NCBI RefSeq assembly: GCF_001651855.1
Contig: NZ_LNQC01000076.1
Coordinates: 200,572-264,571 of the forward strand
DNA from: Sinorhizobium americanum
GTDB lineage: Bacteria; Pseudomonadota; Alphaproteobacteria; Rhizobiales; Rhizobiaceae
DNA length: 64,000 nt
Reading direction: 5' to 3'
In this document: piece by piece, positions 2,198-12,588 of the stretch
Layout: each line of letters starts with the position of its first letter
Numbering within the stretch: the stretch's first letter is position 1
Notes under the pieces: model-generated
Seen by the model: the letters and a program-made list of their open reading frames with translations, nothing else
Databases searched by the model: none
What the model was told of the DNA's origin: nothing
Translations under genes and position numbers: made by a program

Positions 2198-2536
2198 TCA
2201 GCCGAGCCGGAGGTCAATGCCGGGGTGTAATTTCTTGAGGTTCGGCAGCGACTTCGACTGCCAGGGAAACTCCGAACTTCCGCGCACGGTGAACTGGATG
2301 TTCGGCCGCTTGCGCGCCTCGATCGTCAGCTTGGCAAGCAGGTTGATGCCGGACGAGTTAAGAAACTGCAAGCCGGTGACGTCGACCGTCAGGCGGTCCG
2401 GCTCGGCCTCGAGAATGCTCATCACCAAGGAATATATAGGGGCATAGGCCTCCGTGCTCGGCAGCCGCATGGTGCCGTCGAAGTATATGTCCTTGCCCTC
2501 CGACCAAACGCGATACTCTTCTTCCTTGATTTCCAT
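2198..2536 (-). CDS. STAS-domain protein (anti-sigma-factor-antagonist type)
   Basis: A 112-residue single-domain protein and the last gene of the six-gene operon. The segment [20 protein letters not shown] matches the core strand and helix of STAS antagonists, and the serine of NSSGI sits where such proteins are phosphorylated. Family knowledge: a partner kinase phosphorylates this serine, a PP2C phosphatase removes the phosphate, and only one form binds the target. The next gene upstream encodes a GHKL-like ATPase (possible kinase), and a PP2C phosphatase lies beyond it, so all three parts of a partner switch are adjacent. It resembles the cyanobacterial slr1659-type regulators. Confidence 0.8.
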
Positions 2537-2551
2537 TTTTTTCGTTGCCCA

Positions 2552-9379: not shown

Positions 9380-10612
9380 GTGATCCTGAACCATCGTGTT
9401 ACGCGTATTTCGGTCGGCATTCTACTCCTGGCCGTCGCCATTGCCGTTCTGCTGCCGGACCTGACCGGCTATACCAGCCTCGACGGCACGGTCAACGCCC
9501 GCTTCGCGATCATCAACTCGCCTATCGATGGCGAGATTTCCAAGCCGCCGCCGCGAATCGGCACGCCCGTGACAGAAGGCGAAACCCTTGCGGTCATTCG
9601 CAACGATCGCGTTAACCGCGCGATTCTTGCCTCGCTTCGCGCCGAGCATGGCACGGCCGTCGAGCGCGTCGCGGCGCTGCGCCGTGAGCGCGACGAACTC
9701 GCCCTGCTGCGCGACGAGCTTGGCCAGCGTATGGGTGTCTTTCAGAGTGCGACGATTGCCAGCCTTGAGCGCGAGCTAGCAATTCTGCAGAAGCGCGTTG
9801 AGGTATCGCGTGCTCAGGACGTGGTGGCGAAAGTCGACCTCGATCGTCGCCAGGAGCTGGAATCGAAGGGGATCTTCACGCGCAAGATGGTGGAGGCGGC
9901 CGAGGCAGCCGGCGCCGCAACGGGGGGCGAGGTCGAGATCAGCAACCTGACTGTCGACTTGCTTCAGCAACGCCTCGAAGCTGTGCGACAGGGCATTTTC
10001 GTGATGGGAGACGGCCAGAACGACGTGCCTTATTCCAGGCAGCGTCAGGACGAGGTGATCGTTCGCATCAACGATCTCGATACCCGCATTGCCGAAAATG
10101 AGACGCGGGCCAGTCAGGCGGCGCAGCAGCTGACTGAGGAGGAGAAGCGCGTCCGCAGCCTTGAGTCGGCCACGATTCCTTCGCCGTTCGGCGGCGTCGT
10201 CTGGAGCAGGAACGTTGTCAGCGGTTCCAACGTCGTTCTGAACAATGAAATGATGCGCATCCTCGACTGCCGCGAATTGTTCGTCGATATTCTCGTCCCC
10301 GAGGTCGACTACGATGAGATCTATCCCGGCCGCGAAGCTGAGGTCCGCTTGTTCGGTCGCGGAGACGTCTTCAAAGGCAAGGTACAGGCCGTCAAGGGCA
10401 GTTCCGCGGTTGTCGAAAAAGACTCGCTCGCCGCCAACGAGCCGGAAACCGAAGAGCGCAGTGCACGAATCCGCGTCGCGCTGGCGCCGTCTGCGCTCAA
10501 CGCCGACTTTGCCAATTTTTGCCAGGTGGGACGAACGGCGCAGGTGCGCTTTTCCAAACGCAACATCCGTCTGACGCGGTGGTTTGAAAGCCTGTGGTTC
10601 AATCTCTTCTAG
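9380..10612 (+). CDS. bgsB: Membrane fusion (HlyD-type) protein of mixed-linkage beta-glucan synthesis
   Basis: A 410-residue protein: one N-terminal membrane anchor (about residues 10-30), a lipoyl/barrel-sandwich segment, a long coiled coil (about 85-260, rich in Arg/Glu heptads), and a C-terminal beta-barrel. It starts with GTG at 9380, with AAGGG about 9 nt upstream. Family knowledge: in S. meliloti, BgsB is a HlyD-like protein needed with BgsA to make and export (1,3)(1,4)-beta-D-glucan. Its 3' end overlaps bgsA by 19 bp, so the two are translationally coupled. The name rests on gene order and protein type. Confidence 0.8.
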   Translation: MILNHRVTRISVGILLLAVAIAVLLPDLTGYTSLDGTVNARFAIINSPIDGEISKPPPRIGTPVTEGETLAVIRNDRVNRAILASLRAEHGTAVERVAALRRERDELALLRDELGQRMGVFQSATIASLERELAILQKRVEVSRAQDVVAKVDLDRRQELESKGIFTRKMVEAAEAAGAATGGEVEISNLTVDLLQQRLEAVRQGIFVMGDGQNDVPYSRQRQDEVIVRINDLDTRIAENETRASQAAQQLTEEEKRVRSLESATIPSPFGGVVWSRNVVSGSNVVLNNEMMRILDCRELFVDILVPEVDYDEIYPGREAEVRLFGRGDVFKGKVQAVKGSSAVVEKDSLAANEPETEERSARIRVALAPSALNADFANFCQVGRTAQVRFSKRNIRLTRWFESLWFNLF

Positions 10613-12588
10613 CACTCGCGCCGACCTTGCTGGTCATCGCCTTCTTCCTGCTCGGACCATCCAATTGGTCGCGTCATCAAAGCTGGGCGCGGGCGACTAC
10701 CTGTGCGTTCGTCGCGGCCGTGGCACTACGCTACATAGTCTGGCGTTTCACCGAAACGGTTCTCCCCTATCCGAATGACGGCGCCAATTTCTATTGGGTC
10801 TGGTTCGTGTTCATCGTCGAGCTGCTCGCCTTTTCCGAGGTCGTGCTGTTCCTCATCCTGATGAGTCGCTATATCGACCGCAGCGTCGAGGTGGATGAGC
10901 TTGCGCGGTCGTTCTTCGCGCGGCCGGAGAGCGAGTTGCCAAGCGTCGACATCTTCATTCCCACCTACAACGAACCGCTCGACGTGCTGGAACGAACGAT
11001 CGTCGGCGCGCTGGCGCTTGACTATCCGAAAGACAAGCTCGCGGTCTATGTGCTCGACGACGGGCGGCGCGATTGGCTCAGGACCTTTTGCGAGGGGCGC
11101 GGCGCCATTCACGTGACACGCACCGACAACGCTCATGCCAAGGCCGGCAACATGAACAATGGCTTGCGGGTCAGCTCCGGAGACTTCATTGCCGTCTTTG
11201 ACGCGGACTTCGTCCCCTATCGCCGTTTTCTGCGCCGGACCTTGCCGTTCTTTTTGGACGAGACCATCGGCATCGTGCAGACGCCGCAGCATTTCTTCAA
11301 CGTCGATCCGGTACAATCGAACCTCGGTCTCGAAAATATATGGCCGGATGAACAGCGGCTGTTCTTCGATGAGATTGCGCCGAGCCGGGACGGCTGGGAC
11401 GTGAGTTTCTGCTGTGGTTCCTGCTCGATCGCGCGTCGCACGGCGGTCGATATGATCGGCGGCTTCCCGACCGAGTCGATCACCGAAGATCTGCTGACGA
11501 CGCTCTCGATGCTCAACAAGGGCTACAAGACCCGCTACCTGAACGAACGGCTGTCGATGGGCCTGGCGGCTGAGAACCTCACCGGCTACTTCGTCCAGCG
11601 CGAACGCTGGTGCCAGGGCGGAATCCAGACGCTCTACCTGCATAACGGTCCCTTGCGCGGGCCGGGCCTCTCGCTCTTCCAGCGCATCATGTTCCTGCCG
11701 ATGTCCTGGCTGGTGCAATATCTGGTCCGTTTCGCCGTGCTTCTCGTCCCGATCGTCTATCTCTGGTCCGGCGCCCTGCCGCTCTATTTCACCAATGTTG
11801 CCGACTATGTTTCGAACCAGATACCGCTGCTGACCGCCTATTTCCTGCTGATGCTCTGGCTGGCGCCGACCCGCTACCTGCCGCTGGTCTCCACCGCCGT
11901 CGGCACGTTCGCCACCTTTCGCATGCTGCCGACGGTGCTTTCGAGTCTGGTGCGGCCGTTCGGCAAGCCCTTCAAGGTGACCCCGAAGGGCAGCGGCAAC
12001 GAGGCAAACCAGTTCGATGCCTATACCTTTACCTGGATCGCAGCCTTCATCGTCGTCACGGCGGCAGGGCTACTGATCAACATCGTTCCGGAGACGGCGC
12101 ATATCGAGGGGTCCTTCTCGACAATCGCAGCGCTCTGGTCGGGCCTCAACGTCGTGGTCCTCGTCATTGCCTCGCTAATTTGCTTCGAGAAGCCGCGCCG
12201 TCTTCTCCAGGCGTTCAAGCTCGATGAGGCCGCGGATGTCGACGGCAGCGCCGGGCGCCTGGTGAGCCTTTCGCTCGATAAGGCAGTTGTAGCGGTTCCC
12301 ACCGAAACAAGGTTCAAGTCGACCCGCGTTACGTTGAACCTTGAAGGTTTCGCGCCGCTTCAGGCGGAGCTCAAACAGGTGACCCAGCGGCGCGGCGACA
12401 TCAGCCGTTCCGGTGACCAGCGGCGCTATTACCTGCATCTCCACTTCGATCTGCGTGGCTTCGAGCGCGACAAGATGATCATCAAGCTCTATACCGGCAA
12501 CTATTCCCAGGAGGTACCGGATATCGACAAGGTGGCAATTTCCGTAAACCTGATGCTGCGCGCCTTCGGCCGAACGCGCACCGCTTAG
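10594..12588 (+). CDS. bgsA: Family 2 glycosyltransferase, c-di-GMP-activated mixed-linkage beta-glucan synthase
   Basis: A 664-residue membrane protein with three N-terminal transmembrane segments, a cytoplasmic GT2 domain (about 115-360), then three or four more transmembrane segments. Processive synthase motifs are complete: VLDDG, DADF, TEDLLT and QRERW. The C-terminal about 100 cytoplasmic residues lack the RxxxR/DxSxxG signature of PilZ, as expected for BgsA, whose tail binds c-di-GMP in a different way in S. meliloti. It starts at GTG 10594 inside the end of bgsB. A cellulose or curdlan synthase is less likely because bcsB and the other bcs genes are absent. Confidence 0.83.
   Translation: MVQSLLALAPTLLVIAFFLLGPSNWSRHQSWARATTCAFVAAVALRYIVWRFTETVLPYPNDGANFYWVWFVFIVELLAFSEVVLFLILMSRYIDRSVEVDELARSFFARPESELPSVDIFIPTYNEPLDVLERTIVGALALDYPKDKLAVYVLDDGRRDWLRTFCEGRGAIHVTRTDNAHAKAGNMNNGLRVSSGDFIAVFDADFVPYRRFLRRTLPFFLDETIGIVQTPQHFFNVDPVQSNLGLENIWPDEQRLFFDEIAPSRDGWDVSFCCGSCSIARRTAVDMIGGFPTESITEDLLTTLSMLNKGYKTRYLNERLSMGLAAENLTGYFVQRERWCQGGIQTLYLHNGPLRGPGLSLFQRIMFLPMSWLVQYLVRFAVLLVPIVYLWSGALPLYFTNVADYVSNQIPLLTAYFLLMLWLAPTRYLPLVSTAVGTFATFRMLPTVLSSLVRPFGKPFKVTPKGSGNEANQFDAYTFTWIAAFIVVTAAGLLINIVPETAHIEGSFSTIAALWSGLNVVVLVIASLICFEKPRRLLQAFKLDEAADVDGSAGRLVSLSLDKAVVAVPTETRFKSTRVTLNLEGFAPLQAELKQVTQRRGDISRSGDQRRYYLHLHFDLRGFERDKMIIKLYTGNYSQEVPDIDKVAISVNLMLRAFGRTRTA

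What the first reader, a model, noticed from the sequence alone, without database searches (positions are those of the whole stretch)
2198..12588. Partner-switching operon placed head-to-head with the beta-glucan synthase genes
Six overlapping genes encode two GHKL-like ATPases, two STAS-type modules, a sensor PP2C phosphatase and a GGDEF-EAL enzyme, divergent from bgsBA. A partner-switching (Bgr) module controlling c-di-GMP for mixed-linkage glucan is known in S. meliloti, but as I recall it is not adjacent to bgsBA there and its STAS and kinase genes are in a different order. Here signal sensing, c-di-GMP output and the target synthase form one locus.
Basis: partly seen in the sequence, partly recalled or inferred. 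Interest (0 to 1): 0.75.

Follow-up and report, generated by a model that had tools for sequence, protein, structure and literature searches.

The report
Switch operon between two polysaccharide loci
A soil and root-nodule bacterium carries a six-gene phosphorylation switch, already described in a close relative, between two sets of genes that make sticky sugars, and comparing relatives shows the switch core also exists without its usual output enzyme.

Summary
The operon is real. The window comes from a Sinorhizobium closest to S. americanum, and 2198-8961 (-) is the ortholog of the published S. meliloti bgrRSTUWV operon, head-to-head with bgsBA (418 bp). Gene order is NOT different from S. 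meliloti; only position is (57.5 kb from bgsA in strain 1021, 5-6 kb in the ten S. fredii/americanum-type records compared). Adjacency is ordinary for this clade, and relatives show four geometries.

(1) The AraC gene 773-1930 is CuxR, c-di-GMP activator of the arabinose-polysaccharide operon just left of it: the switch sits between two c-di-GMP-controlled polysaccharide loci, and cuxR is linked to bgr more often than bgsA is. (2) BgrS/BgrT is a second, degenerate kinase/STAS pair: BgrS has the SpoIIAB/SiaB fold without ATP-binding motifs; BgrT is a STAS module lacking the SSG motif, fused to a SAM methyltransferase. (3) In 9 related loci bgrSTUWV occurs without the GGDEF-EAL gene, a divergent cytosolic PP2C gene standing there instead; none of the 7 of these genomes searched has bgsA. 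STUWV is thus separable from c-di-GMP. How BgrS, BgrT and the second phosphatase work is inferred, not shown.

The parts
1..374 (-). 5' part of uxs1, first gene of the APS operon; uxe, the glycosyltransferase gene and a mannosidase-like gene continue left of the window
   Evidence: tblastn with S. meliloti APS proteins: window hit 79%; L093 hits uxs1, uxe, GT, mannosidase-like 73-82%
773..1930 (+). cuxR ortholog, c-di-GMP-responsive AraC activator
   Evidence: full-length match to PDB 5nla_A, E 2.7e-168; 68% to the S. meliloti AraC beside uxs1-uxe; RRRWPR motif
2198..2536 (-). bgrV, STAS protein with SSG phosphoacceptor motif
   Evidence: NF047705 132.9 bits; LNSSG in 84 of 84
2552..3112 (-). 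bgrW, GHKL protein kinase
   Evidence: NF047703 173.2 bits; NELxENAxKF N-box 84 of 84, SGLGL G2 box 83 of 84
3117..5471 (-). bgrU, membrane sensor (dCache-like, HAMP) with SpoIIE PP2C phosphatase
   Evidence: GGDYYD, GDVTGHG, TDGVTEA and DDIT motifs in 84 of 84
5468..6646 (-). bgrT, degenerate STAS (1-113) fused to a class I SAM methyltransferase
6643..7203 (-). bgrS, SpoIIAB/SiaB-fold protein without ATP-binding motifs
   Evidence: AlphaFold2 model of its last 166 residues, pLDDT 88; Foldseek 1l0o, 1til, 6kko; N-box Asn replaced in 84 of 84
7267..8961 (-). bgrR, GGDEF-EAL enzyme; both catalytic motif sets conserved, no RxxD I-site
   Evidence: RxxD in 0 of 85
9080..9105 (-). conserved element upstream of bgrR
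   Evidence: pattern found in 18 of 104 bgrR upstream regions, incl. non-adjacent S. meliloti
9216..9248 (+). conserved bgsB upstream box (CAATTTTTAGGGTTGTTCAA)
   Evidence: core exact upstream of 12 of 23 bgsB entries, incl. non-adjacent S. meliloti
9380..10612 (+). bgsB, HlyD-like MLG export partner
10594..12588 (+). bgsA, mixed-linkage glucan synthase with c-di-GMP-binding C-terminus

Best explanation
This is the bgrRSTUWV partner-switching operon of an S. americanum/fredii-type Sinorhizobium, orthologous to that of S. meliloti. BgrU senses a periplasmic signal and dephosphorylates the STAS protein BgrV at its SSG motif; BgrW rephosphorylates it; the phosphorylation state of BgrV sets the diguanylate cyclase activity of BgrR; c-di-GMP then activates BgsA (mixed-linkage glucan) post-translationally and, probably, CuxR (transcription of the arabinose-polysaccharide operon) on the other side. 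BgrS and the STAS part of BgrT are a diverged second kinase/STAS pair that can probably no longer cycle by phosphorylation and acts by binding, gating BgrT's methyltransferase or competing for BgrV/BgrW. Shown here: orthology, gene order, motifs, linkage. Taken from S. meliloti work: U/W acting on V, V acting on R, c-di-GMP binding by BgsA and CuxR. Inferred: the SSG serines as the site, feeding of CuxR by BgrR, and the role of S and T.
For: Same order in S. meliloti; R-S-T-U-W-V in 79 of 80 loci (the best 80 of 206 found); catalytic and phosphoacceptor motifs; BgsA c-di-GMP residues R599 and H615 in 21 of 21; CuxR identity. In a family sample of 297 genomes bgrT occurs in 31 (E<=1e-60), bgsA in 15 (E<=1e-150) and strong cuxR in 26 (45 at E<=1e-50, of which I kept those with 350 bits or more); 14 of 15 bgsA genomes and 16 of 26 cuxR genomes have bgrT. 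On one contig within 12 kb: bgrT-cuxR in 9 of 16 genomes that have both, bgrT-bgsA in 4 of 14. Papers (passages only): U/W on V and V on R in S. meliloti; BgsA binds c-di-GMP; CuxR activates the APS operon.
Against: No activity was measured here. 17 of 31 bgrT genomes lack bgsA, so bgr is not dedicated to MLG. 5 of 23 BgrR-type genomes have neither bgsA nor a strong cuxR; 30 of 80 loci have neither in the held flanks, some of them short. The EAL catalytic set is intact in sequence, so BgrR could also be a phosphodiesterase. Linkage counts are not corrected for shared ancestry (all 4 close bgrT-bgsA pairs are in the window's own genus), and 10 of the 26 strong cuxR genomes have no bgrT.
Confidence: 0.78

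Rival explanations
1. Methylation-centred reading: STUWV is an output-independent partner-switch core whose constant enzymatic output is the STAS-gated methyltransferase BgrT; BgrR is a plug-in output acquired in one branch.
For: 9 loci have STUWV without bgrR. In them the BgrV NSSG and BgrW N-box signatures stand in 8 of 8 readable loci, the BgrS N-box Asn is lost in 9 of 9, and methyltransferase motif I is kept in 9 of 9 (8 as in the window; L111 with one C changed to S). Motif I is invariant at D, CC, G, G, D and F in 84 of 84 BgrR-side rows; the BgrT methyltransferase half is the most conserved stretch measured (median 86% to window).
Against: The loci were fetched by BgrT similarity, which inflates its apparent conservation; in S. 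meliloti 1021 BgrT (89%) only ties with BgrV (89%). The tree is unrooted, so BgrR loss is equally possible. The substrate is unknown, and the second PP2C could be the output.
Confidence: 0.3
2. The bgr operon serves MLG only, and the neighbouring cuxR and APS genes are bystanders.
For: S. meliloti bgr is reported to act on MLG (citing passages; original not read). 14 of 15 bgsA genomes have bgrT.
Against: bgr is linked to cuxR more often than to bgsA (9 of 16 against 4 of 14 within 12 kb; 44 against 18 of 80 loci), on either side of the operon and in several genera. bgsA lies beside cuxR without bgr nearby in two draft genomes (L103, L140).
Confidence: 0.25
3. A sigma-factor switch of RsbUVW/SpoIIAB type.
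For: BgrS folds like SpoIIAB and UsfX; BgrU is a SpoIIE phosphatase; weak sequence matches of BgrV to anti-sigma antagonists (E 0.24 and worse).
Against: No sigma factor among the nine window proteins scanned; BgrV and BgrW score above cut-off for the slr1659/slr1658 superfamilies while ant_ant_sig is far below its own (16.8 against 53.45 bits); a GGDEF-EAL gene heads the operon in 100 of 111 loci.
Confidence: 0.04

Closest known systems
S. meliloti bgrRSTUWV partner-switching system (Baena et al. 2019; seen only as citations, paper not held; abstract recalled)
   Same: Six genes in the same order and strand; 77-89% protein identity in strain 1021
   Different: Here directly beside bgsBA and directly beside cuxR; in S. 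meliloti 1021 it is 57.5 kb from bgsA, and in strain RCAM1750 four genes separate it from cuxR
P. aeruginosa SiaABCD
   Same: PP2C sensor, GHKL kinase, STAS-like substrate, diguanylate cyclase; BgrS model matches SiaB (6kko, TM 0.64)
   Different: BgrU 138.6 bits against a SiaA cut-off of 700, BgrW 16.5 against a SiaB cut-off of 85; STAS of the slr1659 type instead of SiaC; GGDEF-EAL enzyme; extra BgrS and BgrT
CuxR and the APS operon of S. meliloti
   Same: cuxR divergent from uxs1-uxe-GT, same order
   Different: In the window and its close relatives cuxR directly abuts bgrV
slr1658/slr1659 superfamily (NCBIfam)
   Same: BgrW and BgrV score above the curated cut-offs
   Different: BgrS (27.6 bits) and the BgrT N-terminus (39.9 bits) are below them: a diverged second pair, the only other members found in the window's genome at E<=0.001

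Membership tests
Bgr system of S. meliloti | Order R-S-T-U-W-V on one strand | tested here: met
Bgr system of S. meliloti | PP2C phosphatase, GHKL kinase and STAS with phosphoacceptor serine motif | tested here: met
   (motifs only)
Bgr system of S. meliloti | BgrR is the target and makes c-di-GMP for MLG | not testable with these tools
   AGDEF motif conserved 85 of 85; no assay
MLG synthase BgsBA | BgsA C-terminal residues needed for c-di-GMP binding (R599, H615) | tested here: met
CuxR/APS | Full-length CuxR homolog divergent from uxs1-uxe | tested here: met
CuxR/APS | c-di-GMP binding by CuxR | not testable with these tools
   RRRWPR motif present; that this is the binding motif is recalled
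SiaABCD | SiaA equivalog and SiaB family kinase scores | tested here: not met
   138.6 < 700 and 16.5 < 85 bits
GHKL kinase (BgrS) | N-box Asn and G2 glycines for Mg-ATP | tested here: not met
   Asn replaced in 84 of 84; no G2 glycine pattern in profile alignment; fold itself met
Phosphorylatable STAS (BgrT N-terminus) | Serine in the SSG positions | tested here: not met
   NNTA where BgrV has NSSG. At the first serine position N 78, A 4, S 2 of 84; at the second T 57, A 26, M 1 of 84; a threonine as acceptor in the 57 is not excluded
RsbUVW sigma switch | Cognate sigma factor in or beside the operon | tested here: not met
   none among nine window proteins; genome not searched for partners

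The most novel reading that the evidence does not exclude
bgrSTUWV is a self-standing signalling core in which an intact kinase/STAS pair (BgrW/BgrV) and a catalytically dead duplicate pair (BgrS/BgrT-STAS) jointly gate a methyltransferase, BgrT. GGDEF-EAL (BgrR) or a second PP2C phosphatase are interchangeable add-ons, and control of mixed-linkage glucan and arabinose polysaccharide by c-di-GMP was grafted onto it, with bgsBA and cuxR repeatedly captured beside it.
Probability: 0.3. Interest if true: 0.75.

Novelty: new member of a known kind. Interest (0 to 1): 0.5.

Why it matters
The c-di-GMP field asks how one diguanylate cyclase is wired to particular outputs. This locus puts one switch-controlled cyclase between two polysaccharide systems, each with its own c-di-GMP receptor, in a genus with genetically tractable strains, so local against global signalling can be tested. 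The BgrR-less loci predict that the switch has a second, c-di-GMP-independent output, for which the methyltransferase BgrT is the first candidate; no function for BgrS or BgrT is stated in the passages I read.

Tried and rejected
Different gene order in S. meliloti: rejected. Shared divergent promoter: not supported; in Sinorhizobium bgsB and bgrR each keep their own conserved upstream element when unlinked; no sigma-70-like site or terminator in 8900-9450 and no Rfam match in 1-16000. In one search the bgsB core was exact in 12 of 23 entries (two of them, L001 and window, are the same DNA), only approximate in 7 (6 Sinorhizobium/Ensifer, 1 Mesorhizobium far upstream), and absent in 4 (L035, L040, L074, L103); the bgrR element matched in 18 of 104, so both are clade features, not universal ones.

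Neighbours of bgr loci that have neither bgsA nor cuxR: 17 flank proteins from 5 such loci (of 30) showed no recurring polysaccharide synthase (the other 3 proteins were two BgrR paralogues and one gene beside a cuxR locus). The BgrT model has mean pLDDT 56 and its Foldseek list is not relied on. PDB sequence searches for BgrW, BgrS and BgrV gave nothing better than E 0.02. Text searches: a wrong operon spelling and SMb20447 gave 0 papers; Bgr protein names gave two relevant papers, already seen; STAS domain + methyltransferase + SpoIIE + diguanylate cyclase gave one paper, seen as a listing, apparently unrelated. I cannot say that the adjacency or the BgrR-less form is unpublished: Baena et al. 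2019 and Schaper et al. 2017 are not held.
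Full report
What is there. The window is G000:C76:200572-264571 of a 6.65 Mb genome. BgrT and BgsA match the S. americanum record NZ_CP013110.1 at 99.7 and 99.8%. Six minus-strand genes (2198-8961) face bgsB-bgsA (9380-12588) across 418 bp. Pfam and NCBIfam give BgrV (slr1659/STAS), BgrW (slr1658 superfamily), BgrU (HAMP, SpoIIE, weak dCache), BgrT (UbiE-like methyltransferase with an N-terminal slr1659-like module), BgrS (nothing in Pfam; weak slr1658) and BgrR (GGDEF, EAL). Only T/U and S/T overlap, by 4 bp.

Comparison with S. 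meliloti. In annotated strain RCAM1750 the order is EAL protein, a 172-aa protein, methyltransferase, SpoIIE phosphatase, ATP-binding protein, hypothetical protein, which tblastn assigns to R-S-T-U-W-V; strain 1021 agrees, with 77-89% identity. An eLife paper also writes 'BgrSTUWV' (passages). So the order is the same. The distance between bgrT and bgsA (start coordinates) is 47.6-57.5 kb in eight S. meliloti records that I chose from the lists, 57.5 kb in strain 1021, against 5.05-5.94 kb in the ten S. fredii/americanum-type records at the top of the lists, NGR234 and CCBAU45436 among them (coordinates).

How general the linkage is. A scan of named genomes with BgrT found 206 relatives; the best 80 were kept. 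Order R-S-T-U-W-V holds in 79 of 80; the exception, L013 (Ensifer aridi), has a 66% BgrR-like gene on the other strand. Within the held flanks bgsA lies in 18 of 80 in four geometries: head-to-head 12, same strand upstream 3, same strand downstream 2, tail-to-tail 1. cuxR lies in 44 of 80, both in 12, neither in 30; ten loci have under 5 kb on one side, so misses are possible. On a BgrT tree, over the 99 rows with enough flank or with bgsA, bgsA linkage needs 8 changes and cuxR linkage 9. In an even family sample of 297 genomes: bgrT 31, bgsA 15, both 14; cuxR 45 at E<=1e-50, of which 26 have 350 bits or more (my cut; four more lie at 322-333 bits), 16 of these 26 with bgrT. Fisher tests for bgrT with bgsA and with cuxR are tiny (1.1e-14, 8.1e-12) but ignore relatedness. 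Pairs within 12 kb on one contig: bgrT-cuxR 9 of 16, bgrT-bgsA 4 of 14, bgsA-cuxR 6 of 12, two of the last with bgr on another contig of a draft genome. 17 of the 31 bgrT genomes have no bgsA at E<=1e-150.

CuxR. The AraC gene at 773-1930 matches PDB chain 5nla_A over its length (E 2.7e-168), is 68% identical to the S. meliloti AraC that stands divergent from uxs1-uxe-glycosyltransferase, and the same operon lies left of the window (L093; window hit 3-374). That 5nla is CuxR is recalled; that CuxR activates uxs1-uxe-apsS... with c-di-GMP is stated in PMC7902896 and PMC9495663 (passages). RRRWxR is present in all 36 sequences that cover its first arginines (x is P in 34); the other 11 of 47 rows were trimmed there.

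A second, degenerate pair. BgrV keeps LNSSG in 84 of 84, and BgrW keeps its N-box (NELxENAxKF) in 84 of 84 and the G2 box SGLGL in 83 of 84. In BgrS the N-box Asn is V, I, M or L in 84 of 84 and T in the 9 BgrR-less loci; a BgrS/BgrW profile alignment (probability 90.8) shows no G2 glycine pattern. The model of the last 166 residues of BgrS (pLDDT 88) matches SpoIIAB, SiaB and UsfX structures. The BgrT N-terminus aligns with BgrV at 26% and has NNTA where BgrV has NSSG; the T is A in 26 of 84. The window's genome holds no other slr1658 or slr1659 matches at E<=0.001 than these four. I read this as one pair duplicated, the copy dead as a phosphorylation cycle and its STAS half fused to a methyltransferase. 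The BgrT methyltransferase half is 86% identical to the window's at the median, its STAS half 68%; whole proteins: T 81, U 79, V 79, R 69, W 69, S 67%. Because loci were fetched by BgrT this ranking is biased.

BgrR. AGDEF is present in 85 of 85. The EAL catalytic residues (list recalled) are kept in 83-85 of 85; one row has a gap there and one H for Q533. The RxxD inhibition site is present in 0 of 85 (R alone in 20, D alone in 6). Sequence cannot decide whether EAL is active. In S. fredii CCBAU45436, whose bgrT and bgsA start 5.05 kb apart, a screen of 25 GGDEF proteins found eight active cyclases, one (SFb52570) with an EAL domain that showed no phosphodiesterase activity yet was needed for cyclase activity (PMC8546604, abstract and passages). 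It may be BgrR; I could not map the tag.

The core without BgrR. Of 111 loci examined (110 entered the tree, 102 different BgrT sequences, since some genomes came in twice), 100 have BgrR on the operon's strand, 9 have no BgrR but a divergent gene for a roughly 310-320 aa SpoIIE phosphatase in its place, and 2 are unassigned (L013, and L115 which is cut). In the family sample the split is 23, 7 and 1. The phosphatase form is one side of a branch with SH-aLRT 100 in a quick, unrooted tree in which L105, one of its rows, is a long branch, so one switch of form, direction unknown. None of its 7 family genomes has bgsA, against 14 of 23 BgrR genomes (p = 0.007, uncorrected); a strong cuxR is in 1 of 7 against 15 of 23. 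The other two of the nine loci come from another family, found in an even class sample in which 3 of 289 genomes, the window's own included, had BgrT; I did not search those two for bgsA or cuxR. An even phylum sample added only same-family hits (6 of 398).

Mechanism and limits. Most likely BgrU and BgrW set the state of BgrV, BgrV sets BgrR, and c-di-GMP acts on BgsA and probably CuxR. The first steps are reported for S. meliloti (I recall from the Baena abstract, not read here, that unphosphorylated BgrV inhibits BgrR). That both polysaccharides draw on this cyclase, and what BgrS, BgrT and the alternative phosphatase do, are inferences. Upstream elements argue against a shared promoter in this clade: the bgsB box and the bgrR element each occur in S. 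meliloti, where the units are far apart.

Verdict. An ordinary ortholog of a known switch, correctly spotted, in an arrangement normal for its clade; the interest lies in the third partner (cuxR), the degenerate pair with its methyltransferase, and the BgrR-less core.

Noticed in passing
L013:6208-8226 (-) and L041:2106-3758 (-): A second kind of BgrR-like GGDEF-EAL protein (66-67%) beside bgrSTUWV/bgsBA in two Ensifer genomes; in L041 it is itself head-to-head with bgsBA.
   Followed up: partly
L013 and L016 (Ensifer aridi LMR001); S. meliloti GR4 records NC_019848.2 and NC_019849.2: E. aridi LMR001 has two bgr loci, each beside its own bgsBA copy in a different geometry; S. meliloti GR4 has a BgrT match on each of two replicons (the rest of those loci not looked at).
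   Followed up: partly
window 9216-9248: A bgsB-linked sequence (CAnTTTgAGGGTTGTTC); the 11-base core occurs 15 times in 2.4 Mb of held loci (which overlap in part), 12 of them upstream of bgsB. Regulator unknown.
   Followed up: partly
L103, L140: bgsBA directly beside cuxR but without bgr nearby, so the two effectors also associate with each other.
   Followed up: partly
L105:7034-8062 (-), 4320-7037 (-): Beside one BgrR-less locus lie a Tll0287-like sensor and a hybrid histidine kinase, possible further inputs.
   Followed up: no
L092:11357-11875: BgrS is annotated as 'ubiquinone biosynthesis methyltransferase UbiE' in S. meliloti records, evidently a carry-over from its neighbour BgrT; the model of the window's BgrS is a GHKL fold.
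   Followed up: yes
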